Positions 25,450-35,656 of a stretch of 50,420 bases of DNA are shown here, in pieces. The notes beneath the pieces were generated by a model. It did not search any database. It was not told where the DNA came from and worked only from the letters and a program-made list of their open reading frames with translations. Both the position numbers and the translations under genes were made by a program. Source of the stretch: Cyanobacteria bacterium FACHB-471 (GTDB lineage Bacteria > Cyanobacteriota > Cyanobacteriia > Elainellales > Elainellaceae). Within the stretch, counting starts at the first letter, position 1, and every line of letters begins with the position of its first letter. The DNA lies in contig JACJOC010000110.1 of NCBI GenBank assembly GCA_014695345.1, forward strand, positions 1-50,420, given 5' to 3'.

Positions 25450-25488
25450 GCCGATCGCGCTCTAGCCCATCCCAAAAGACGGCGATCG
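25450..25488. repeat. 39-bp repeat, copy at the 3' end of the acyl-activating gene
   Basis: 38 of 39 bases match 29637-29675 in the HDO gene, same orientation. Both ends carry HIP1-like GATCG/GCGATCG words. In this copy it is read in a different frame, provides the last codons (SPSFGMG) and the stop of the acyl-activating enzyme, and extends past it. Confidence 0.9.
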
Positions 25489-27582
25489 TGTTATACGCTC
25501 CCGCAACACCCGACGCAGGACTTTCTGGGAGGCGGTGCGAGGTAAGGACTCCACGATGACGAGATCGCGCACTTTAAACAACGGATTAAGCTGCTGGGCG
25601 ATCGCCTGCTGGCACTGCGTCTGTAAGGCTGCTGACGTTAGCTCAGTCCCTAGTCGTACAACGGCATAGATAACCAGTTGGCTTGGTCCCCCTGCCGGAG
25701 GCGAGACCGCGATCGCTGCCGTTTCCTGAATCTCCTCTAGCTGATTGAGCACCCGTTCAATCTCAGCCGAACTGACCTTAATGCCGCCTAAGTTCATCGT
25801 GTCATCCACTCGACCACAGACGCGGTAGTAGCCGTTGTCCAAGCGTTCTAGATAATCACCGTGTCGCCGTAGGGGAGTCATGGATGCAGCAGCACCAGCC
25901 GGTAAATTGCCCCTGGACGGGTCGTTCGGCAATCCCTTCCACCGGGGAGTGTCAGCAAAATATACGTGATGGTGGTCTTGGTTGAGCAGGGTTGTGGAAA
26001 GGCCCATCGCAGGGGGCACAATAAACGCTTCTCCTTTGTCAGTAGGTTGACCGTTTTCATCGAGCAGCACTACATCCAGACCCAAGGCGGGAGTGGTAAA
26101 GGTTGCTGGCGCACAGGGTTGAACCAGCGTCCCAGTGATGTAACCACCGCCAATTTCAGTGCCGCCGCAGTACTCGACAATGGGACGATAGCCAGCTAGC
26201 GACATTAAATACAGCATGTCCTGTGGATTCGCACATTCTCCAGTCGAGCTAAACGCTTTGATGGCGCTCCAGTCCAGTCCCTCCATGCAGTAAGTCGTTC
26301 TCCAGACATTGACCAAACTGGGGACAACTCCCAACATCGTCACCTTCGCTGCTTGAATAAATTCGCCGTAGCCGCGAGTGGTGGGCGCACCATCGTACAG
26401 CGCGATCGTCGCTCGGTTAATCAGGCTGGCGTAGATCAGCCACGGTCCCATCATCCAGCCTAAACTGGTTGACCAAGCCAGCACATCTCCTGGATGCAGG
26501 TCGTGATGCAAATGACCATCCGCAGCACACTTAATTGGGGTGGTTTGCGTCCAGGGAATCGCTTTCGGATCGCCAGTTGTACCCGAGGAGAACAAAATAT
26601 TGGTGGGGTCCATAGCCGATCTTGGTACCGCGTTAAAGGTGTCGTTCTGGCTGAGAAAATTGCGCCAGGTCAAATCTTCTGGGCGGACCACTACAGGATC
26701 AGCACATTCAGAAAGCACGATCGCCAGGGGCGCGTTGGCTGCTATCACTTTGTGGTAGAGCGGCAGGCACTTGCCCCCCCGGTACATCACATCTTGGGTA
26801 AAAATTGCCCTGGCGTGGGCGATTCGCAGCCGTGCGGCGATTTCTGCTGGTGCAAAGCTATCGGCGATCGACACGACGATACAACCTGCTTGGACAATGC
26901 CCAGGTAAATTGCCACGGACTCAGGCGTCATCGGCAGATCAATGGCGATCGCCTCCCCCGGTTGCACTCCCAATTCCACCAAACCATAAGCAACACGGTT
27001 GGCAAGGCAGTGTAACTCCTGATAAGTCCACATCCCCAGTGACTTACTGCGGGATTGCCGTTCTGAGCTAAAGATAATCGCTGGTGCAGTGGCAGAGGCT
27101 TGAAAACAGCTTTCGACAATATTGAGGCGAGCATCAACCAACCATTGCGGAGATTCCACACCTTGAGATAAATCGACAATCTGGCTGTAAGGCTGCTGTA
27201 GGCGAATGCCGAGCCGTTGCACCATCCGGTCCCAGAATTTAGCCCGGTTCTCGATAGACCAGGTGTGCAGTTGTGAGTAAGTCCTCAGTTGTAATGCCTG
27301 CATCAAGGCAACAATATTGGTAGACTGAGCTTGCATTTGCGTCGGGAACCAAGCCGGGGGCATTTCCTGGGTTACATCCCAATCACAGAAAGCTGTTTTG
27401 TACAACAATTCGTGTAGGGAAAACGGGTGTTTGGGTGTTAGCAAATGCTGAGTCAGATCTTGCCAGCAGGCGATCGCAGGTAGCGTTGCGAGGGATTGGT
27501 TAATGTAGGGCAGGATTTCAGTAGCGGTCTCTGCTGTCACATCGCAGGCGATGATCTGCTCCAGGGAAAGTTGCTTTGCCAT
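25462..27582 (-). CDS. Acyl-activating enzyme (AMP-forming CoA ligase), AAE17/18-like
   Basis: 706 aa. This is an ANL adenylating enzyme that forms acyl-AMP and then acyl-CoA. ATP loop FSSGTTGDPKA (331-341), the YCGGTE motif, GRVDDTMNLGG, and the C-terminal catalytic Lys687 (RTASQKVLRR) are intact. The roughly 160-residue N-terminal extension (HPFSLHELLYKTAFCDWDV) and the motif ADSFAPAEIAARLRI match, from memory, the plant peroxisomal AAE17/AAE18 group rather than ordinary acetyl-CoA synthetases. The final residues SPSFGMG come from a copied piece of the HDO gene and replace the natural tail. Last gene of the operon; it starts 2 bp after the PLP enzyme. Substrate unknown: acetoacetate from the homogentisate pathway or an organic acid from the branch enzymes are options. 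Confidence 0.88.
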   Translation of the reverse strand: MAKQLSLEQIIACDVTAETATEILPYINQSLATLPAIACWQDLTQHLLTPKHPFSLHELLYKTAFCDWDVTQEMPPAWFPTQMQAQSTNIVALMQALQLRTYSQLHTWSIENRAKFWDRMVQRLGIRLQQPYSQIVDLSQGVESPQWLVDARLNIVESCFQASATAPAIIFSSERQSRSKSLGMWTYQELHCLANRVAYGLVELGVQPGEAIAIDLPMTPESVAIYLGIVQAGCIVVSIADSFAPAEIAARLRIAHARAIFTQDVMYRGGKCLPLYHKVIAANAPLAIVLSECADPVVVRPEDLTWRNFLSQNDTFNAVPRSAMDPTNILFSSGTTGDPKAIPWTQTTPIKCAADGHLHHDLHPGDVLAWSTSLGWMMGPWLIYASLINRATIALYDGAPTTRGYGEFIQAAKVTMLGVVPSLVNVWRTTYCMEGLDWSAIKAFSSTGECANPQDMLYLMSLAGYRPIVEYCGGTEIGGGYITGTLVQPCAPATFTTPALGLDVVLLDENGQPTDKGEAFIVPPAMGLSTTLLNQDHHHVYFADTPRWKGLPNDPSRGNLPAGAAASMTPLRRHGDYLERLDNGYYRVCGRVDDTMNLGGIKVSSAEIERVLNQLEEIQETAAIAVSPPAGGPSQLVIYAVVRLGTELTSAALQTQCQQAIAQQLNPLFKVRDLVIVESLPRTASQKVLRRVLRERITRSPSFGMG

Positions 27583-27584
27583 CG

Positions 27585-28850
27585 CTACCCCCTGTCCAGG
27601 TGAAAGTGTGACGTAGTAATCTCATTCAGAGCTTTCAGCAAACGATTCACTTCAGCCTCGGTGTTGTAGTGGACGAGTCCAATACGCACAAAGCCACCGC
27701 TTGCTTCAAGCTCTAGCCGTTGCGTCAGTCCCAACGCATAGAAGTTGCCATGCCAGACAAAAATTCCCCGATCGCCCAATTCTTTTGCAACCGCGTAGGG
27801 AGTCTGCCCCTTCAAGCGCAGGGCAACGGTGGGAGTGCGCCAGCTAAAGCGACTCGGTTCCGTAATGCCGTAAATGGTCAGCTCTGGAATTTGTAACAAT
27901 CCCGGAATCAACAGTCGGGCTAACTTCCGTTCATAGTGCTGGATTGCTTCCATCGCTTGTATCAGGGCAGCCCGATTCCCCAACTGGGGTGAAATCTGAT
28001 GACCGAGTTCGGTCAGATAATGCAATGTTGCAATCAGCCCGGCCATGCCTTCATGGTTCTGGGTGCCTGTCTCCCAGCGACCGGGAGCACCGTCGGGGGC
28101 GGGTCGCACCTTATAAGGAAGAAGCCGCGCCAGATGTCTCCGTTTGCCGTATAGAATGCCAATGTGAGGACCAAAAAACTTATAGGCAGAACAAGTGAGA
28201 AAATCACAATCCAGTGTCTGCACATCGATCGGTCCGTGGGGCACATAGTGAACCGCATCAACAAAAACTAAAGCTCCCACCGCATGGGCAAGGCGCACCA
28301 CGGCAGCTATATCATTAATCGTGCCGACGGCATTAGAGGCATAGCCGATCGCCACCACCCGTGTCCGCTCATTTATCATTTGTTCCAGACTATCCATGTC
28401 CAGCGTACAATCCTGGGAATTAATATCGACCACACGAAGGACTACGCCCTCCGCTGCCAAGGTAGACCAGGGTGTGACATTGGCATCATGATCCAGCCGG
28501 GTAACAATGATTTCATCTCCCGGTTGCAGCTCTCGTCCGATCGCCCGACTGATGGCAAAGGTCAGGGTTGTCATGTTCGCCCCAAACACGACTTCGTCTG
28601 CATCGCAACCCAGCAGACTTGCGACAGCCGAACGGGCAGAGGCAATCAGACCATCGGTCTGGGCACTGGTCAGAAAGGCTCCGTGGGCATTGGCGTTGGA
28701 ATGCAACAGGTAGTCGCCCATTGCTGCGATCGACGTTCGTGGCACCTGAGTCCCACCGGGACCATCAAAGAAAACAATGGGTTGACCGTTGAGTTCCTGC
28801 TGAAGTGCCGGAAATTGCTCACGAATCCAGTCCAGATCGAGAGAAGTCAT
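27585..28850 (-). CDS. Class V PLP-dependent aminotransferase/cysteine-desulfurase-like enzyme
   Basis: 421 aa. The sequence has FFDGPGGTQVP at 27-37, a motif of the cysteine-desulfurase-like subfamily typified by TIGR01976, His121 (RLDHDANV), Asp198-x-x-His201 and Lys224 (SAYKFFGPH), the expected Schiff-base lysine. The conserved Cys loop of true desulfurases is not obvious, so sulfur transfer is doubtful. A lyase, racemase or transaminase acting on an amino acid is possible. It follows the 2-oxoglutarate enzyme by 40 bp and precedes the CoA ligase by 2 bp, so it belongs to the same operon and may act on its neighbour's amino-acid product. Confidence 0.85.
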   Translation of the reverse strand: MTSLDLDWIREQFPALQQELNGQPIVFFDGPGGTQVPRTSIAAMGDYLLHSNANAHGAFLTSAQTDGLIASARSAVASLLGCDADEVVFGANMTTLTFAISRAIGRELQPGDEIIVTRLDHDANVTPWSTLAAEGVVLRVVDINSQDCTLDMDSLEQMINERTRVVAIGYASNAVGTINDIAAVVRLAHAVGALVFVDAVHYVPHGPIDVQTLDCDFLTCSAYKFFGPHIGILYGKRRHLARLLPYKVRPAPDGAPGRWETGTQNHEGMAGLIATLHYLTELGHQISPQLGNRAALIQAMEAIQHYERKLARLLIPGLLQIPELTIYGITEPSRFSWRTPTVALRLKGQTPYAVAKELGDRGIFVWHGNFYALGLTQRLELEASGGFVRIGLVHYNTEAEVNRLLKALNEITTSHFHLDRG

Positions 28851-28890
28851 AACGATCTCCTAATATAGAATTGCCTCGTGCTGCCAACCA

Positions 28891-29598
28891 TTAGTTTTTT
28901 CCAGGCATTAATCCAGGGCAGGTGAAAACAAAGACATCCCGAATGCCCTGTTTAATGGAGCTGGTTTTGATTTCAGAAGTGAAATGGAAAAATTGTCGAT
29001 CGCTGAATACCAGCAGTTCATCCGGATTGAGAATTTTGTCAAAAATTGGCTGCTCCTGCCTGGATCGATAAAGATGAGTTTCTCCACCTTCAACACCTCT
29101 CCGTTGGACGCAGAAAATTCCCACCAGATCGACCCCATCCCGGTGAATTCCTTCAGGAGCTGGACTTCCCATGTGCTGGCTGGAACTGGTAATGCGAATC
29201 TGGTGAACGCCAATCTCGTTGGCTGTTGAGCAAAGTTTGCAGAATTCAAAGAACTCTAAAACCGTTTTTTGAAAATCCTCCAGCTCAATCAGGGCATCCG
29301 CTAACTCTGGATACTCTCTGACAACATTACCCAGCAAAGGATTGTAATCTTTGGTCTGAAAAAAGAGTCTATGCGGTAAATGAACCAGACGATCGGCTTC
29401 AACTCTAAAGTGAGATAAACGCCGGAAACGATAACTGCCTTTCAGATAAGGATCAACAGGAAGATCATCAAAGAATGGCTTCAGTTTATCTATGTCAACA
29501 GTAGTCAGCGCTTCTAATGCATAACTGGTAAAAGAGTTAACATTCTGGTTCTTCAATGACAAAAGCATTCTTTCAGCCTCCTGGCTCGATGATTTCAT
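28891..29598 (-). CDS. PF10014-type 2-oxoglutarate/Fe(II) dioxygenase (amino-acid hydroxylase-like)
   Basis: 235 aa. The facial triad is His152-x-Asp154 (GIHRDGVDLVG) and His205 (FFHFTS), with Arg220 (GIRDVFVFT) for 2-oxoglutarate. Order, length and the GGET and SDRQ motifs match the family of L-isoleucine 4-hydroxylase (IDO), whose members hydroxylate free amino acids. Substrate cannot be read from sequence. It follows the HDO gene by 18 bp and is the fourth gene of the operon. A second oxygenase beside the HDO suggests successive oxidation of one amino acid. Confidence 0.85.
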   Translation of the reverse strand: MKSSSQEAERMLLSLKNQNVNSFTSYALEALTTVDIDKLKPFFDDLPVDPYLKGSYRFRRLSHFRVEADRLVHLPHRLFFQTKDYNPLLGNVVREYPELADALIELEDFQKTVLEFFEFCKLCSTANEIGVHQIRITSSSQHMGSPAPEGIHRDGVDLVGIFCVQRRGVEGGETHLYRSRQEQPIFDKILNPDELLVFSDRQFFHFTSEIKTSSIKQGIRDVFVFTCPGLMPGKN

Positions 29599-29616
29599 TG
29601 CACTGACAGTTCAAAA

Positions 29617-30537
29617 TCAGGCGTAAATGGCGTTTAGCCGATCGCACTCTAGCCCATCCCAAAAGACGGCGATCGCCTCTAAGATTTCCTGACCGCCCTG
29701 GATAAACTTGGCTCGATCGAATCCCGCTTGGAAATAGACCGCTTCCAGTTCTTCCAGGGTGTGTCCGGCATGTTGGGCTTCCACGCGGTTGTGCCAGGTG
29801 AAGAATGCCAGTCGCAGTTGGGGATGACGCAGTTGTTTAATCTGCATCAAGCCATCTTCTAACTCTTGCCAAAAGCCTGCTGCTGCCCAATTTTCTACGG
29901 CAAAGCTGGCACCTTCGGCAATATTGGTATCGTCACTGCCGTAGAGGCGTTGCAGTTCATCACAGAAGTGCAGCGTGGTGGCGCTCCCGTGCTTCCGTTG
30001 ACCAATGTCTTCATAGTGCAACCCCAGCCCCTCGGCTACGGCAGTCAGCCACTCAAAATGAGCCGCCCGGAAGCGACAAATACCACCATCTACCGTTCCT
30101 TCGGTGCTGACAAATTCCGGATCACCTTCTCGATCTTTTTCCTCGTCTGTTTGAGTCATCTGGGTACCCGCCGTGCCACTCAACTTGCGATAAATCACGC
30201 CCAGTTCATTCAGCAAAATCTCCCGACTGGCACGAGACTGTTGCAGGGTGGGCGAGTTGATCACTTTCAACAGGGCTGCAACTAAGAATTGATTGGAAAA
30301 GACAGAAAATTGCTGGATAAAATACCGCAATTCCTCATCGGTCGCGTTGCCTGCCTGAAACCAGCGTGTGTAGGCATTGTCGGTGAGGATGCGGTCCTGA
30401 AAAATGACCCGATCGACCTGATTGAGAAAATCTTGAAATTCATTCACCCGCGATCGCGTTAACTCTCCTTTCTGTAACCGCACTTGGATTCTGGGAGAGA
30501 TCGTCAGTGAGTGAGCGTTAGGGGTAAGAGTGACCAT
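29617..30537 (-). CDS. Haem-oxygenase-like di-iron oxidase (HDO family)
   Basis: 306 aa, all-helical. Likely iron ligands are Glu111 (LLNELG), His160 (RFRAAHFEW), Glu215 (AVENWAA) and the motif HNRVEAQHAGH with His249, Glu253 and His256. The spacing H-x3-E-x2-H equals that of H311, D315 and H318 in the SznF HDO domain, with Glu for Asp. Other relatives are UndA, BesC and CADD. HDOs do N-oxygenation, oxidative C-C cleavage or desaturation on amino and fatty acids. Here it lies 3 bp after hmgA, with 18 bp to the next gene. Its 3' 39 bp are duplicated at the operon's end. Confidence 0.8.
   Translation of the reverse strand: MVTLTPNAHSLTISPRIQVRLQKGELTRSRVNEFQDFLNQVDRVIFQDRILTDNAYTRWFQAGNATDEELRYFIQQFSVFSNQFLVAALLKVINSPTLQQSRASREILLNELGVIYRKLSGTAGTQMTQTDEEKDREGDPEFVSTEGTVDGGICRFRAAHFEWLTAVAEGLGLHYEDIGQRKHGSATTLHFCDELQRLYGSDDTNIAEGASFAVENWAAAGFWQELEDGLMQIKQLRHPQLRLAFFTWHNRVEAQHAGHTLEELEAVYFQAGFDRAKFIQGGQEILEAIAVFWDGLECDRLNAIYA
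29637..29675. repeat. 39-bp repeat, source copy at the 3' end of the HDO gene
   Basis: This segment is coding in the HDO gene (AIAVFWDGLECDR). The near-identical copy at 25450-25488 is read in another frame. Since the reading here is a natural protein end, this is the likely source. Confidence 0.85.
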
Positions 30538-30540
30538 AAA

Positions 30541-31713
30541 TCAACTGCTCCTTCGATCAATTGTCCAACTGTAGGCATACTGACAGTCTTCTAATGCGAT
30601 CGCCTGCTGAGTGAACTGCAATGGGCGAAACGTGTCGATCATCACCGCCAGTTCGTCCGTCCGGTCCTGACCGATCGAGGCTGCATACTTTCCGGGATGG
30701 GGACCGTGGGGTAGACCGCTGGGATGCACCGTGATTGACGATCTCTCTATCCCGTTACGTGACAGAAAATTCCCTTCCACGTAATACAGCACTTCATCTG
30801 AATCGACATTGGAGTGGTTGTAGGGAGCGGGAATTGCCAGCGGGTGATAATCCAATAGTCGCGGCACAAACGAGCAGATCACAAATCCTGGTGCTTCAAA
30901 GGTTTGATGAACGGGTGGCGGCTGGTGAACTCGTCCAGTAATCGGTTCAAAGTCAGCAATGTTGAAGGCGTAAGGATAGAGATGACCATCCCAACCCACT
31001 ACGTCCATTGGATGATGGTGATAGGTGTAGGCTGTGATGCGATCGCGCGCTTTCACCCGGACTTCAAACTCACCCACCTCATCGCGAGGAACTAATGCTT
31101 CGGGTGGTCGCAAGTCCCGCTCCCCGTAAGGTGAGTGTTCTAAAAACTGTCCCTCACGATTGAGGTAGCGGGTCGGTGGGGTAACGTGTCCCTGAGCCTC
31201 AATCACCAGCAGCCGTTGGAGAACGTCCACATTGGGCAGGAGACGCCAGATCACGCCTGTGGGAATCACCAAATAATCTCCAGGGCGATAGTGTAGTAAG
31301 CCGTATTGGCTCTCTAACACACCGCTGCCGTCGTGGACAAACATCACCTCATCCCCATGAGCAGAGCGATACCAATAGGACATGGGTTCTGTCGGCTGCG
31401 CCACCGAGATACAGATATCCGCATTTGCCAGCAGGGGGATGCGAGACGAAATGGCATCGCCTGCACTCATGCTTTGGGCAGTGCGTAAATGGCGGGGCTG
31501 CAAAGCGACAGGTTGCTCATATTCCAGGGCAGTTGTTTGCACTAGCCGCACGGCATCTACCTGAGTAGGTGGGTGCAGATGATAGAGCAGCGATTGAATT
31601 CCCGTAAAGCCATGTATTCCCATCAGCTCTTCGTGGTACAACGAGCCATCCGGTTGACGGAATTGCGTATGGCGCTTCTTAGGAATTGTGCCGAGACGGT
31701 AGTAGTACGTCAT
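30541..31713 (-). CDS. hmgA: Homogentisate 1,2-dioxygenase
   Basis: 390 aa, the short bacterial form (the human type is about 445). It opens the homogentisate ring to maleylacetoacetate using Fe(II). The typical start YYRLGTIPKKRHTQFRQPDG is present. The expected metal-site block PYNHSNVDSDEVLYYVEGNF gives His300 and Glu307 (with Asp306 beside it), and HPSGLPHGPHPG gives His330/336/339. The spacing of the first ligands is one residue longer than in the human enzyme, so the exact Glu/Asp ligand is uncertain. It lies 32 bp after hppD and 3 bp before the HDO gene. Confidence 0.9.
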   Translation of the reverse strand: MTYYYRLGTIPKKRHTQFRQPDGSLYHEELMGIHGFTGIQSLLYHLHPPTQVDAVRLVQTTALEYEQPVALQPRHLRTAQSMSAGDAISSRIPLLANADICISVAQPTEPMSYWYRSAHGDEVMFVHDGSGVLESQYGLLHYRPGDYLVIPTGVIWRLLPNVDVLQRLLVIEAQGHVTPPTRYLNREGQFLEHSPYGERDLRPPEALVPRDEVGEFEVRVKARDRITAYTYHHHPMDVVGWDGHLYPYAFNIADFEPITGRVHQPPPVHQTFEAPGFVICSFVPRLLDYHPLAIPAPYNHSNVDSDEVLYYVEGNFLSRNGIERSSITVHPSGLPHGPHPGKYAASIGQDRTDELAVMIDTFRPLQFTQQAIALEDCQYAYSWTIDRRSS

Positions 31714-31745
31714 GGTTCTGTACCGTTTTGCTCAACTGCTGCCCC

Positions 31746-32837
31746 TCATAAATTGCCGCGCAATGCCTGTTCTCGCTCGATCGCCTCAAACAGGGATTTG
31801 AAATTGCCTTCTCCAAAGCTTTGCGCTCCGTGCCGTTCAATGATTTCAAAAAATAGGGTAGGACGGTCTTCAACGGGTTGCGTAAATATTTGCAAAAGAT
31901 ATCCCTCGTGATCGCGATCGACAAGGATTCTCAGATCTGCTAGTTGGTCAATCGGTTCATCAATCTCGCCCACGCGGGTGGCTAAATCGTCGTAATATGT
32001 GGTGGGAATTCGGAGAAATTCAACGCCAGCTTCGCGTAACTGAGTGACGGTTTGAATGATGTTGGCGGTCGAGCAGGCAATGTGCTGAACTCCTGGTCCT
32101 TGATGGTATTCCAGGTATTCTGCAATTTGGGATTTTCGCTTGCCTGGAGCAGGCTCATTGATCGGTAGTTTGATTTTGCCAGAGCCGTCCTGCACCACTT
32201 TAGACATCAGCGCAGAGTATTCAGTAGAGATCGCTTTGTCGTCGAAATGTACCAGTAGCTCAAAGCCCATCGTGTCCGCAAAGAACTTAACCCAGTGCTC
32301 CATGGCACCCAGTTCAACATTGCCGACAACGTGATCAATGGTTTGCAGCCCGGCTGAGTGATTACGACGCCTAACGGGTTGCGGCTGAAATTCCGGGGCA
32401 AAAATGCCGTGATACTCGGTGCGATCGACAAACTTGATCAGCACATCGCCATAGGCACGGATAGCGGCATAGCGCAATAAGCCATGCTCATCCTCAGCAG
32501 TGGTAGGAGGAATAACACCGATCGCCCCGTGTGCCGTCACGTGCTTATAAGCGGCGATCGCATCGGGTACCGCCAGGGCAATCACTGCCACATGATCACC
32601 ATGTTTCAGCACACGATGAGCCATCAGGTGGTCAGGACCGACTGCTGTACTGAAGACGAAGCGAATATCGCCTTGCTCCATTACATAAGAGGCAACTTTA
32701 CGGCTACCGGTTTCTAACCCGCAATGAGCGGTATTGGTAAACTCAAATAATGTTTCATAAAACTTGGCGGCTTGCCACGCATTGCCTACATAAAACTCAA
32801 GGTGATCGAAGCCAAGGACAGGAAAAAAATCAGTCAT
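31746..32837 (-). CDS. hppD: 4-hydroxyphenylpyruvate dioxygenase
   Basis: 363 aa. The enzyme converts 4-hydroxyphenylpyruvate to homogentisate with Fe(II) and O2. The C-terminal vicinal-oxygen-chelate half has the complete triad: His169 (TIDHVVGNVE), His252 (GVQHIA) and Glu331 (LFFEIIERHG). The ending GEGNFKSLFEAIEREQ is diagnostic. A strong ribosome site GGGAGGAA precedes the ATG. In cyanobacteria HPPD usually feeds tocopherol synthesis; here it is the first gene of an operon with hmgA, so tyrosine breakdown is the likely use. Confidence 0.95.
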   Translation of the reverse strand: MTDFFPVLGFDHLEFYVGNAWQAAKFYETLFEFTNTAHCGLETGSRKVASYVMEQGDIRFVFSTAVGPDHLMAHRVLKHGDHVAVIALAVPDAIAAYKHVTAHGAIGVIPPTTAEDEHGLLRYAAIRAYGDVLIKFVDRTEYHGIFAPEFQPQPVRRRNHSAGLQTIDHVVGNVELGAMEHWVKFFADTMGFELLVHFDDKAISTEYSALMSKVVQDGSGKIKLPINEPAPGKRKSQIAEYLEYHQGPGVQHIACSTANIIQTVTQLREAGVEFLRIPTTYYDDLATRVGEIDEPIDQLADLRILVDRDHEGYLLQIFTQPVEDRPTLFFEIIERHGAQSFGEGNFKSLFEAIEREQALRGNL

Positions 32838-33458
32838 GTGATTCCTCCCTCTATTAGGAAGAATTGATTATTTGTAGCGATTGAAGACAAATGTTAAAGA
32901 ACAGATTACAGACATTGCATGCAAAACTTGCGCGAGGCGATCGCGACCAATTTCAACAAAAAATACTCAACAAATTTCGATTCAAAAATTGTTAAGTCAA
33001 TCACCGAGTTCAAAACACTAGAAAGCTTGCAAACTCTCTATCATTCTTTGAGGCGAGTGGCTTAACTTAAACTGAGAGTCCATAAGTAAATTATAGATTT
33101 ATTGTCTAGGTTCGCCCAATTGAAGTAACTAATTATTAAGGCTATCTTGACGTCTATCACTAATAGAATAGCTATAATTCCTGTCTGCTTTATACGTCTA
33201 CAGAAGCAAGTTTTTCAATTGGTTCAGTGCGATAAAAAGTTAATCACATTGTTAATAGAAATTTGATCAGAATGTCGAATTTCTGTTGCAAAACTGTACA
33301 AATTATTTGCAAACTTTTTTATCCAAAACGCCTAACCTCTCTAGCGCTAGATGGAGTTAAGCAAAAACTCGACTATGATTAAATTCTCATTGGTAGCAAC
33401 ACTCACTCTTCACTACTCTTTCCTGCTGCCTGATGTTTGAAAAGAGGAGATACATCGC
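32838..33458. promoter_or_regulatory. Divergent intergenic region between the hppD operon and the 296-aa/fahA genes
   Basis: A 621-bp AT-rich stretch with no gene. A TATAAT at 33173-33178 could serve the plus-strand genes, with TTGACG 20 bp upstream, which is longer than normal spacing. Four TTGCAAA-like words occur near both ends. No regulator gene is present in the cluster and no known operator is recognised, so the divergent promoters would need an external regulator. Confidence 0.45.
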
Positions 33459-34349
33459 GTGTTACTCTCCCTTAAACAACTGCTCTCGGCGATCGTAGAT
33501 TATGCTGGATTGTTTCCTCCTGCCCAGTTGAGTCTACCCGAAGCGCTAGCAACCTACGATCGCGCTTGGTCTTCTCCCCATCACTGGATGCTTGGTCACT
33601 TTGTGGTACCAGCCTCACGATTACCTGAACTAATTCAACTTTTGCCAGGCTTGCCTAGTCGGAGCAGTTCCTCTCAGCCCTGGACACTGAGCGTCATTCT
33701 TTCGTCAAACTGGGTAGCCGAACTTGAGCAGATTCACCAGCTCAGCCATGCCACTAGCCAAATTTTGATTCGCGCCTTGGAGGTTGCACCGTTACCACCA
33801 GACAAGATCCAGCAGGTTTACCAGCATTTACCGACAGAAGTAACCGCTTTCTTTGAAATTCCGTTTGGTGTGGATTTGGCACCTTACCTGAAAATTTTGC
33901 AGCAGCCCGGTACTGCTGCAAAACTGCGCACAGGCGGACTCACCCACAATGCCTTTCCTGACGGCAAACAGCTTGCTCAGCGAATACTATCTCTAGCCGA
34001 AGCTCAGATTCCCTTGAAAGCTACAGCGGGATTACATCATCCTTTGCGAGGTCAGTACTGCTTAACCTCTCAAGCTGACAGTGCCCCCGCCACCATGCAT
34101 GGTTTTTTAAACGTACTGTTGCTGGCAGCTTTGGCTTATCAAGGCAGTATTAGTGGTGATGAAGCAGTGGCAATTTTGGAGGAGCGATCGCACCACTCGT
34201 TCCAGTTCACCGATACGACTATCCATTGGCGGAAACACTCCCTTACCTTGTCTGAAATTGAACGCTCCCGGCAGCAGTTCTTCCACTCGTTTGGTTCCTG
34301 TTCGATTCAGGAGCCGATTGCCGATCTTGATCATCTGGAACTCCTATGA
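33459..34349 (+). CDS. Unnamed protein coupled to fumarylacetoacetase
   Basis: 296 aa from GTG 33459, preceded by AGAGGAGAT. I recognise no named family. Conserved-looking motifs are AGLFPPA (16-22), KLRTGG (155-160), PLKATAGLHHPLRG (185-198) and HGFLNVLLLAA near 215. A Lys/His-rich pattern on an alternating alpha/beta plan suggests a barrel enzyme. The last codon overlaps the fahA start in ATGA, so the two are translationally coupled. Since a GST-type maleylacetoacetate isomerase is missing from the cluster, this protein is a candidate for that step or for handling the pathway's products. That role is inference. Confidence 0.75.
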   Translation: MLLSLKQLLSAIVDYAGLFPPAQLSLPEALATYDRAWSSPHHWMLGHFVVPASRLPELIQLLPGLPSRSSSSQPWTLSVILSSNWVAELEQIHQLSHATSQILIRALEVAPLPPDKIQQVYQHLPTEVTAFFEIPFGVDLAPYLKILQQPGTAAKLRTGGLTHNAFPDGKQLAQRILSLAEAQIPLKATAGLHHPLRGQYCLTSQADSAPATMHGFLNVLLLAALAYQGSISGDEAVAILEERSHHSFQFTDTTIHWRKHSLTLSEIERSRQQFFHSFGSCSIQEPIADLDHLELL

Positions 34350-35656
34350 TTTGTGCTATTGATGCCACTCACGATCGAAACCTACGAAGCTGGGTTGAGT
34401 CAGCAAACACAGCCGACACGGAGTTCCCCATTCAAAATTTGCCGTTTGGGGTATTTCAAAGATCGGGCAGCAGTGATGCACCGCGAATTGGGGTGGCGAT
34501 CGGCGATCAGATTTTAGATTTGGTTGCATGTCGCACCCTTGGGCTATTGGCAGCCCTGCCTGAGTCTCTACAAGTCGCCTGTGCAGCGCCAACTTTAAAT
34601 GCTCTGATGGCGATGGGGAAAACAGCCTCATTACCGTTACGCCATCATCTAAGTCAATTACTGCGAGCAGGTCAGCAGCCAGAAGCCGCCAGACAAATCC
34701 TCGTTCTCAGGACAGATGTGCAGATGCAGTTGCCTACCACGATTGGGGACTACACGGATTTCTATGCCTCAATTTTTCACGCTACGAATGTTGGCAAGCT
34801 GTTTCGTCCTGACAATCCACTATTACCGAACTACCAATATGTGCCGATCGCTTACCACGGGCGAGCCTCGTCCATTGTACCCAGCGGTACTCCGATTCAG
34901 CGCCCCTCTGGTCAACAGAAACGCCCTGAGGATAAAGCTCCCAACTTTGGTCCCTCCCAAATGTTGGACTACGAGCTGGAAGTGGGATGCTTTGTCGGGA
35001 TGGGGAATGTCTTAGGAGAAGCGATCGCCCTGACTCAAGCCGAAGACCATCTGTTTGGACTTTGTCTGGTGAATGACTGGTCAGCGCGAGATATTCAAGC
35101 CTGGGAGTATCAACCCCTTGGACCCTTTTTAGGTAAGAGCTTTGCCACAACGATTTCTCCCTGGGTAGTGACGATGGAGGCGCTTGCACCCTTTCGCGGC
35201 TCTGCCTTTACCAGAACCTCTGATGCCCCAGAAACCTTACCCTACCTCACGGACTCGGTCAATCAAGCGCAAGGTGGCATAGCTCTGACCTTGGAGGTGT
35301 TCCTGACTTCTGCTCAGATGCGTCAAGCAGGAATTGCCCCTTTGTGCCTGAGCCGTAGTCCGTTTCAACAGATGTATTGGACCGTGGCGCAAATGCTCAC
35401 CCATCACACCAGCAACGGCTGCAATCTTCGTCCTGGAGATTTGTTAGCCAGTGGCACTGTTTCGGGCGCTGACGCTGGTACTCAGGGGTGCTTATTAGAA
35501 ATCACCCAGCGCGGCAAGCAACTCCTGACGCTACCCACTGGTGAAGTGCGATCGTTCCTTCAAGCTGGGGATGAAGTAACATTTCGGGGGTATTGTGACC
35601 GGCAGGGTTATCCCCGAATCGGATTTGGTGAGTGCCGGGGACAGATGATTAGTTAG
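34346..35656 (+). CDS. fahA: Fumarylacetoacetase
   Basis: 436 aa. It hydrolyses fumarylacetoacetate to fumarate and acetoacetate, the last step of tyrosine breakdown. The metal and catalytic residues align by spacing with mouse FAH: Asp138 and His145 (DYTDFYASIFHATNVG), Glu210 and Glu212 (DYELEVG), Asp244 (NDWSARD). The offset of 7 between Asp and His and of 34 between the first Glu and Asp244 agree exactly with the mouse enzyme. The length is near that of the eukaryotic form. It overlaps the upstream 296-aa gene by 4 bp. Confidence 0.95.
   Translation: MICAIDATHDRNLRSWVESANTADTEFPIQNLPFGVFQRSGSSDAPRIGVAIGDQILDLVACRTLGLLAALPESLQVACAAPTLNALMAMGKTASLPLRHHLSQLLRAGQQPEAARQILVLRTDVQMQLPTTIGDYTDFYASIFHATNVGKLFRPDNPLLPNYQYVPIAYHGRASSIVPSGTPIQRPSGQQKRPEDKAPNFGPSQMLDYELEVGCFVGMGNVLGEAIALTQAEDHLFGLCLVNDWSARDIQAWEYQPLGPFLGKSFATTISPWVVTMEALAPFRGSAFTRTSDAPETLPYLTDSVNQAQGGIALTLEVFLTSAQMRQAGIAPLCLSRSPFQQMYWTVAQMLTHHTSNGCNLRPGDLLASGTVSGADAGTQGCLLEITQRGKQLLTLPTGEVRSFLQAGDEVTFRGYCDRQGYPRIGFGECRGQMIS

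What the first reader, a model, noticed from the sequence alone, without database searches (positions are those of the whole stretch)
25462..35656. Homogentisate operon with four extra enzymes: candidate undescribed branch pathway
Seen: hppD, hmgA, an HDO, a PF10014-type hydroxylase, a class V PLP enzyme and an AAE17/18-like CoA ligase form one minus-strand operon with gaps of 32, 3, 18, 40 and 2 bp. An unnamed protein and fahA are divergent. Known: hppD, hmgA and fahA make the tyrosine catabolic route. The other four are not part of any textbook version. Inference: either they handle a product or precursor of homogentisate metabolism, or they make a modified amino acid or organic acid from tyrosine-derived carbon. 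Two oxygenases acting on amino-type substrates plus a PLP enzyme plus a CoA ligase is a plausible oxidise-cleave-activate chain.
Basis: partly seen in the sequence, partly recalled or inferred. Interest (0 to 1): 0.85.

Follow-up and report, generated by a model that had tools for sequence, protein, structure and literature searches.

The report
Tyrosine-degradation operon with unrecognised enzymes
In this cyanobacterium, genes for breaking down the amino acids phenylalanine and tyrosine sit with two uncharacterised proteins that look like unrecognised enzymes for the first and fourth steps of that well-known pathway.

Summary
The genes are as described: six minus-strand genes (hppD, hmgA, HDO, PF10014 2OG oxygenase, class V PLP enzyme, acyl-CoA ligase; gaps 32, 3, 18, 40, 2 bp) and a divergent pair (P0007, fahA). 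The "one branch pathway" reading is not supported. HDO lies beside hppD in 44 of 45 cyanobacterial and 12 of 14 planctomycete-type loci. Of 47 HDO+ genomes searched, 43 carry HPPD over cut-off and none classical phenylalanine hydroxylase, PAH. In a Planctomycetota draw, HPPD+ genomes have PAH (11), HDO (2) or neither (5), never both. Best reading: HDO is a pterin-independent Phe 4-hydroxylase. P0007, a DERA-like barrel with two invariant lysines, sits between hmgA and fahA in five loci of another group; canonical MaiA is missing from 39 of 40 genomes searched: a candidate glutathione-independent maleylacetoacetate isomerase. The ligase sits where true acetoacetate-CoA ligases close other homogentisate operons. 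The 2OG-PLP pair is a separate module, mostly found elsewhere though recurring near the operon's ligase end, probably a hydroxylate-then-cleave step on an amino acid. All functions are inferred from genomes; nothing was assayed.

The parts
31746..32837 (-). hppD, 4-hydroxyphenylpyruvate dioxygenase (P0006)
   Evidence: TIGR01263 418.8 bits over cut-off 277
30541..31713 (-). hmgA, short homogentisate 1,2-dioxygenase (P0005)
   Evidence: PF20510 over cut-off, TIGR01015 weak; near HDO and hppD in 44 of 45 cyanobacterial loci
29617..30537 (-). HDO (P0004): heme-oxygenase-like dimetal oxygenase, proposed Phe 4-hydroxylase
   Evidence: model pLDDT 85.5; folds FlcD, BesC, HrmI, CADD, VIA Z 18.8-20.3; E215 and H249-x3-E253-x2-H256 align with BesC; co-occurs with HPPD, not found with PAH
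28891..29598 (-). PF10014 2OG/Fe(II) amino-acid hydroxylase (P0003), first gene of an inserted two-gene module
   Evidence: PF10014 215.8 bits; next to the PLP gene in 25 of 29 other fetched loci; GC 43.2% against 49.8-54.2% for the other genes
27585..28850 (-). class V PLP enzyme (P0002), FGM3-like; proposed retro-aldol lyase
   Evidence: TIGR01976 over cut-off; best PDB sequence match FGM3, E 2e-59
25462..27582 (-). acyl-CoA ligase (P0001), proposed acetoacetate--CoA ligase
   Evidence: best NCBIfam PRK03584; TWWQTETGG of acetyl-CoA synthetase is EYCGGTEIGG here; true AACS in the same slot in other groups
32838..33458 (.). 621-bp divergent intergenic region, presumed promoters
   Evidence: position only; consensus scan no better than chance
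33459..34349 (+). P0007: DERA-like barrel, proposed maleylacetoacetate isomerase
   Evidence: model pLDDT 94.3; VIA Z 13.8 to DERA; between hmgA and fahA in five loci of another group; K155 and K187 invariant in 39 of 39
34346..35656 (+). fahA, fumarylacetoacetase (P0008)
   Evidence: TIGR01266 531.3 bits over cut-off 375.3; start overlaps P0007 by 4 bp

Best explanation
The locus is a full Phe/Tyr catabolic unit plus an inserted amino-acid module. Proposed route: Phe -> Tyr by HDO (O2 and two electrons, no pterin); Tyr -> 4-hydroxyphenylpyruvate by an aminotransferase (not in this operon; one follows the ligase in some relatives); -> homogentisate by HppD; -> maleylacetoacetate by HmgA; -> fumarylacetoacetate by P0007; -> fumarate + acetoacetate by FahA; -> acetoacetyl-CoA by the ligase, split by thiolase. 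Shown: gene order, co-occurrence, predicted folds, conserved residues. Inferred: every reaction of HDO, P0007 and the ligase. My separate estimates: HDO acts in Phe/Tyr breakdown 0.88, is a Phe (or phenylpyruvate) 4-hydroxylase 0.55; P0007 is the isomerase 0.6; the ligase takes acetoacetate 0.75; the 2OG-PLP pair is an independent module 0.75 (lowered on recheck because it recurs near the ligase end), cleaving a gamma-hydroxylated amino acid 0.5.
For: HDO beside hppD, same strand: 44 of 45 cyanobacterial and 12 of 14 planctomycete-type loci, in different gene orders. HPPD over cut-off in 43 of 47 HDO+ genomes, including 18 of the 21 'others', of which only L093 has hppD beside HDO; in Planctomycetota at large HPPD is in 18 of 199 (17 over cut-off). 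PAH in 0 of those 47. Planctomycetota draw: of 18 HPPD+ genomes 11 have PAH, 2 HDO, 5 neither, 0 both; PAH lies near hppD/hmgA in 5 of the 11. In 194 Cyanobacteriota 5 have HDO (2 of them remote relatives) and 7 PAH, none both; two genera of family f33 carry one each. P0007: order hppD-hmgA-P0007-fahA in L226, L227, L230, L232, L233; MaiA over cut-off in 1 of 40 genomes. Of six hppD-linked ligases from other groups five are over the AACS cut-off. Thiolase is next to the ligase in five cyanobacterial loci.
Against: No assay of any kind. PAH/HDO exclusion follows clades, so the Fisher value (11/16 against 0/13, p 1.3e-4) is not corrected for descent; within the one draw it is 11/16 against 0/2, p 0.14. 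PAH 0 of 36 in the window's family includes HDO-less genomes too, so it does not discriminate. Three genomes with a strong HDO show no HPPD (G253, G261, G462). Six of 11 HPPD+PAH+ Planctomycetota have PAH far from hppD, and seven PAH loci of Cyanobacteriota had no hppD/hmgA in the stretch fetched, so the slot swap is seen only in part of Planctomycetota. The review section read names no arene hydroxylase among HDOs. The HDO's first metal-ligand pair is not settled. P0007 is also present in the one genome with MaiA (G240); GST-type matches occur in all 27 cyanobacterial entries; the five genomes with P0007 between hmgA and fahA were not searched for MaiA. The ligase and its cyanobacterial orthologues tested fail the AACS cut-off.
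Confidence: 0.55

Rival explanations
1. HDO works in Phe/Tyr breakdown but on another step or side product, for example an oxidative entry from Tyr or another aromatic amine or acid, or clearance of a toxic quinone; PAH is absent from these clades for unrelated reasons.
For: Linkage and co-occurrence alone do not name the substrate; five of 18 HPPD+ Planctomycetota have neither PAH nor HDO, so Phe hydroxylation is not obligatory.
Against: PAH and HDO were not found together in any genome searched for both, and PAH takes the same neighbourhood in some relatives.
Confidence: 0.27
2. One reading: HDO, 2OG enzyme, PLP enzyme and ligase form one undescribed branch pathway from tyrosine-derived carbon.
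For: They are contiguous here with gaps of 2-40 bp. Of 20 stretches fetched around relatives of the 2OG gene, 4 also hold the ligase and 2 HDO/hmgA, and an aminotransferase related to the one behind the ligase is in 6.
Against: 2OG and PLP occur in 3 of 45 cyanobacterial HDO loci and never between HDO and ligase there; 16 of the 20 fetched stretches hold neither ligase nor HDO; in 5 of 23 loci the pair is followed directly by an SDR and glycine C-acetyltransferase instead; the near relative G220 (HDO 93% identical) keeps the operon without the pair and has its own pair on another contig.
Confidence: 0.1
3. HDO is a CADD-type self-sacrificing p-aminobenzoate synthase that merely sits beside tyrosine genes.
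For: CADD is among the closest folds (Foldseek rank 1, TM 0.80 by target).
Against: TIGR04305 21.8 bits against cut-off 200; no lysine is conserved in 93% or more of 81 sequences, though CADD gives up a Tyr and a Lys; linkage to hmgA has no reason on this view.
Confidence: 0.04
4. P0007 is not the isomerase but a hydrolase, aldolase or helper acting near FahA; isomerisation is done by one of the many GSTs or spontaneously.
For: GST-type matches in all 27 cyanobacterial entries searched, below the MaiA cut-off in 26; DERA-like folds usually cleave C-C bonds (general knowledge). G398 (L245), a planctomycete with hppD-hmgA, has a P0007-like piece 3.8 kb from hmgA whose context is unresolved.
Against: Exact slot between hmgA and fahA in a second, distant group; none seen in loci where a short FAA hydrolase replaces FahA (L228, L240, L241, and 0 of 14 planctomycete-type HDO loci).
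Confidence: 0.35

Closest known systems
Homogentisate pathway operons (phhA, hpd, hmgA, maiA, fahA; gene set recalled)
   Same: hppD, hmgA and fahA are present and recognisable
   Different: no PAH and no canonical MaiA in this genome; HDO and P0007 are proposed in their places; a CoA ligase is added
HDO superfamily (UndA, BesC, SznF, CADD, AetD, PolF)
   Same: fold, and Glu plus H-x3-E-x2-H aligned with BesC
   Different: a separate family, 11-18% identical to the solved chains shown, in primary catabolism; the review section read lists no arene hydroxylase
Biopterin-dependent phenylalanine hydroxylase (PF00351)
   Same: overlapping genomic slot and exclusive distribution in the Planctomycetota searched
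   Different: no sequence match; different fold
Maleylacetoacetate isomerase MaiA (zeta-class GST)
   Same: proposed step
   Different: P0007 is a DERA-like barrel, no GST match
Acetoacetate--CoA ligase (TIGR01217)
   Same: best-scoring kind of family; same operon slot as true AACS elsewhere
   Different: below cut-off; longer N-terminus
FGM3 (fusaoctaxin pathway) and PF10014 hydroxylases such as IDO/HilB
   Same: PLP enzyme's best PDB match is FGM3; 2OG enzyme is PF10014
   Different: substrate unknown; the Tyr proposed as base in FGM3 appears to be Phe here, numbering uncertain

Membership tests
HDO superfamily | heme-oxygenase-like helical fold | tested here: met
   VIA Z 18.8-20.3 to FlcD, BesC, HrmI, CADD; Foldseek E 4e-5 to CADD
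HDO superfamily | alpha-2 carboxylate and alpha-3 His/carboxylate/His ligands | tested here: met
   E215, H249, E253, H256 align with Glu, His, Glu, His of BesC (weak profile match, E 0.94); each conserved in at least 80 of 81. That these are BesC's ligands is recalled
HDO superfamily | alpha-1 Glu and His ligands | tested here: inconclusive
   E111 invariant; its His partner may be H160 after an insertion; no coordinates to measure
HDO superfamily | bound dimetal site | not testable with these tools
   -
Pfam PF14518 Haem_oxygenas_2 | gathering score | tested here: not met
   17.1 against 28.9 bits; matched at E<=1 by 31 of 47 members
CADD pABA synthase (TIGR04305) | family cut-off | tested here: not met
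   21.8 against 200 bits
Phenylalanine 4-hydroxylase, PF00351 | biopterin hydroxylase domain | tested here: not met
   no PF00351 match for P0004
Phenylalanine 4-hydroxylase, activity | Phe to Tyr | not testable with these tools
   distribution only
MaiA (TIGR01262) | family cut-off for P0007 | tested here: not met
   no NCBIfam match at E<=0.001
DERA / class I aldolases | TIM-barrel fold like DERA | tested here: met
   VIA Z 13.8, rmsd 3.5, 216 aligned; the first 33 rows are titled DERA or aldolase, or are entries and designs that I recall as DERA; Foldseek alone gave none at E<=0.001. A shared fold shows no function
DERA / class I aldolases | Schiff-base lysine pair | tested here: inconclusive
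   K155 and K187 invariant in 39 of 39; match to DERA K167/K201 is by recalled motif, not superposed
Acetoacetate--CoA ligase TIGR01217 | family cut-off | tested here: not met
   220 against 520.9 bits
HPPD TIGR01263 / FahA TIGR01266 | family cut-off | tested here: met
   418.8 over 277; 531.3 over 375.3
HmgA TIGR01015 | family cut-off | tested here: not met
   54.7 against 510.75; PF20510 met
HilB, NF042428 | family cut-off for the 2OG enzyme | tested here: not met
   42.1 against 350; PF10014 met
TIGR01976 cysteine desulfurase-like | family cut-off | tested here: met
   481.1 over 352.35

The most novel reading that the evidence does not exclude
The HDO family is an unrecognised, pterin-independent dimetal phenylalanine 4-hydroxylase spread over cyanobacteria, Planctomycetota and several little-known phyla, and P0007 is a Schiff-base, glutathione-independent maleylacetoacetate isomerase. 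Both would be non-orthologous replacements inside a textbook pathway, and arene hydroxylation would be a new reaction for the HDO fold.
Probability: 0.37. Interest if true: 0.87.

Novelty: new variant of a known kind. Interest (0 to 1): 0.72.

Why it matters
Phe to Tyr is generally credited to pterin-dependent enzymes (general knowledge). A dimetal HDO doing it would add a primary-metabolism role and arene chemistry to a superfamily known for natural products, and would explain how HPPD-bearing cyanobacteria without PAH feed Phe into homogentisate. P0007 would fill the isomerase hole of the pathway. Both are testable in laboratory E. coli. The work also places the divergent CoA ligase at the end of the route, and sets apart a 2OG-PLP module of unknown substrate that recurs across cyanobacteria.

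Tried and rejected
Tocopherol supply was rejected as the reason for the linkage: the same HDO and hppD linkage occurs in Planctomycetota, and 7 of the 15 cyanobacterial HDO+ genomes searched have a second HPPD scoring about 270-330 bits besides the operon copy. CADD-like pABA synthesis: rejected as above. Searches of solved structures by sequence with the HDO alignment gave nothing significant. Foldseek for P0007 gave no PDB match at E<=0.001. Promoter and terminator scan: chance level. Literature: searches listed no paper that I recognised as being on an HDO phenylalanine hydroxylase or a non-GST maleylacetoacetate isomerase; I saw listings only, plus passages and section 4 of PMC13108848 and passages of PMC10367076. 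The library is open-access PMC only and the terms were few, so this does not show absence from print. The guanitoxin enzyme GntC was considered for P0002 and dropped (32.1 bits against 415).
Full report
OBSERVATION. Domain searches agree with the names given, with three remarks: hmgA is a short divergent form, the CoA ligase scores best with acetoacetate--CoA ligase models but below their cut-offs, and the unnamed protein P0007 matches nothing in Pfam or NCBIfam. The HDO (P0004) gave one match in the genome. Its model (pLDDT 85.5) has the heme-oxygenase-like dimetal oxidase fold: Foldseek E 4e-5 to CADD, VIA Z 18.8-20.3 to FlcD, BesC, HrmI and CADD. A weak profile alignment pairs E215, H249, E253 and H256 with Glu, His, Glu and His of BesC.

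NEIGHBOURHOODS OF THE HDO. The one scan of genome contigs gave 120 relatives; the best 80 loci were kept. I sorted them by record title into 45 cyanobacterial (with L049, titled Gracilibacteria but probably a mislabelled MAG), 14 planctomycete-type (with L071, titled Chloroflexi) and 21 others. HDO lies within 3.5 kb of hppD on the same strand in 44 of 45, 12 of 14 and 1 of 21. The cyanobacterial miss, L047, begins 332 bp before HDO; of the planctomycete misses L062 ends just behind HDO, L080 has no such excuse. The order is hppD-hmgA-HDO in cyanobacteria and HDO-hppD-short FAH-hmgA in most of the planctomycete loci looked at. Two remote Cyanobacteriota genomes have a 32-33%-identical relative of HDO beside FAH and hmgA. 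Other neighbours in cyanobacteria are amino-acid catabolic: an Lrp/AsnC regulator, thiolase, class I/II aminotransferase, threonine ammonia-lyase, an acyltransferase of the glycine C-acetyltransferase kind, serine dehydratase, indoleamine 2,3-dioxygenase; one member of each cluster was annotated.

HDO, HPPD AND PAH. I took 47 of the 80 HDO+ loci (15 cyanobacterial, 11 planctomycete, all 21 others) and searched their whole genomes. HPPD is over cut-off in 43 of 47: 15 of 15, 10 of 11, 18 of 21; two more have matches below cut-off. PAH (PF00351) is in 0 of 47. It is also in 0 of 36 genomes of the window's family, of which 10 have HDO, so that result does not discriminate. In one draw of 199 Planctomycetota, HPPD occurs in 18 (17 over cut-off), PAH in 17, HDO strongly in 3; G303 at 2e-27 and two marginal matches (G412, G456) were set aside, and none of the six has PAH. 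Of the 18 HPPD+, 11 have PAH, 2 HDO, 5 neither and none both. PAH lies near hppD/hmgA in 5 of those 11 (G445, G330, G291, G415; G384) and far away or on another contig in 6; near hppD is where HDO sits in its own genomes. Pooling HDO+ Planctomycetota (13) against HPPD+ HDO- ones (16): PAH 0 of 13 against 11 of 16, Fisher p 1.3e-4; in the draw alone p 0.14. Neither is corrected for descent. In 194 Cyanobacteriota, 5 have HDO (two of them remote, E about 1e-20) and 7 PAH with no overlap; none of the 7 belongs to the window's class; family f33 has one HDO+ and one PAH+ genus. Those seven PAH genes had no hppD/hmgA within the stretch fetched. The simplest reading is that HDO replaces PAH. Whether the substrate is Phe or phenylpyruvate cannot be told.

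P0007. Its model (pLDDT 94.3) is a barrel; VIA ranks deoxyribose-phosphate aldolases first (Z 13.8, rmsd 3.5, 216 aligned), while Foldseek alone gave no match at E<=0.001. It is in 35 of the 45 cyanobacterial loci and none of the 14 planctomycete-type ones. In five loci of the 'others' (L226, L227, L230, L232, L233; three titled Krumholzibacteriia or Krumholzibacteriota, two 'bacterium') the order is hppD-hmgA-P0007-fahA, and in four of these a ligase follows. K155 and K187 are invariant in 39 of 39 sequences of both groups; they recall the two lysines of DERA (from memory, not superposed). Where a short FAA hydrolase stands in for FahA (L228, L240, L241, planctomycete HDO loci), no P0007 was seen in the stretch; a P0007-like piece in the planctomycete stretch L245 is unresolved. 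MaiA is over cut-off in 1 of 40 genomes searched (41 asked, one not held; at least three entries look like duplicates); the exception, G240, also has P0007, and GST-type matches occur in all 27 cyanobacterial entries. The five genomes with the hmgA-P0007-fahA order were not searched for MaiA. I propose P0007 as the isomerase, perhaps through an imine that lets the C=C bond turn. That mechanism is inference.

THE LIGASE. It is on the same strand within 3.5 kb of HDO in 27 of 45 cyanobacterial loci and somewhere in the locus in 31. Of six hppD-linked ligases from other groups, five (L227, L228, L232, L233, L151) are acetoacetate--CoA ligases far over cut-off; the sixth (L244), 45% identical to the window's, is below it like the window's. 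Two cyanobacterial orthologues (L022, L055) are also below it. The Trp of the acetyl-CoA synthetase motif TWWQTETGG is Gly here (that this Trp limits the acyl pocket is recalled). Acetoacetate is FahA's product. A thiolase is next to the ligase in L023, L026, L027, L053 and L060.

THE 2OG-PLP PAIR. P0003 relatives are in 60 of 388 genomes of the class at E<=1e-20. Of 29 other loci fetched, 25 have the PLP gene next door; more distant relatives in L198-L200 do not. Of 23 stretches examined (20 fetched around the 2OG gene, 3 known HDO loci), 5 (L185, L187, L190, L194, L040) have an SDR dehydrogenase and glycine C-acetyltransferase directly behind the pair. Against simple independence: of the 20, 4 (L188, L191, L192, L195) also hold the ligase, 2 (L191, L192) HDO and hmgA, and 6 an aminotransferase like the one behind the ligase. 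So the pair belongs to the same kind of catabolic island but is not part of a fixed set. The window's 2OG enzyme is 56-68% and its PLP enzyme 64-72% identical to those of the fetched loci, although HDO is 93% identical to G220's; G220 (by matching coordinates the genome of L022) has the operon without the pair and its own pair on another contig. So the pair probably arrived here separately. PF10014 contains amino-acid hydroxylases such as HilB (PMC3684760, listing only), and the PLP enzyme's best PDB match is FGM3, which does a retro-aldol on gamma-hydroxyarginine (PMC10367076, passages; the position of the hydroxyl is partly recalled). A hydroxylate-then-cleave step yielding alanine and an aldehyde or ketone is my guess; the putative FGM3 base Tyr looks like Phe here.

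VERDICT. An ordinary pathway, two probably unrecognised enzymes, one divergent enzyme at the end, and a module that joined it. The claim with the widest reach, HDO as Phe hydroxylase, rests on genomic exclusion and linkage and needs one auxotroph test.

Noticed in passing
Cyanobacterial HDO+ genomes: Seven of 15 have a second HPPD scoring about 270-330 bits besides the operon copy (about 415-440), perhaps the tocopherol one.
   Followed up: partly
window:28891-29598: The 2OG gene is 43.2% GC while the other genes of the locus are 49.8-54.2%, fitting a separate arrival; its PLP partner, though, is 53.8%.
   Followed up: no
L036:13333-14562 and five similar loci (L039, L042, L044, L065, L079): An indoleamine 2,3-dioxygenase gene (Pfam on the L036 copy only) follows the CoA ligase: aromatic amino-acid breakdown islands.
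   Followed up: no
L187:8177-10656: HglS (2-oxoadipate dioxygenase/decarboxylase) and an aldehyde dehydrogenase, probably lysine breakdown, beside the 2OG-PLP module.
   Followed up: no
L089:9410-10813 (also L085, L087): An Lrp/AsnC regulator directly before HDO in Vampirovibrio-titled loci, without hppD nearby, though HPPD is in the genome.
   Followed up: partly
G210:C97 (L020, L021; L075 looks like the same place): HDO and hppD appear broken by frame errors or stops; decay or assembly error, not resolved.
   Followed up: no
window:36619-42476: Large WD40/AAA_35 protein and a divergent AAA_35 protein with a weak, sub-cut-off TIR match beside the operon.
   Followed up: no
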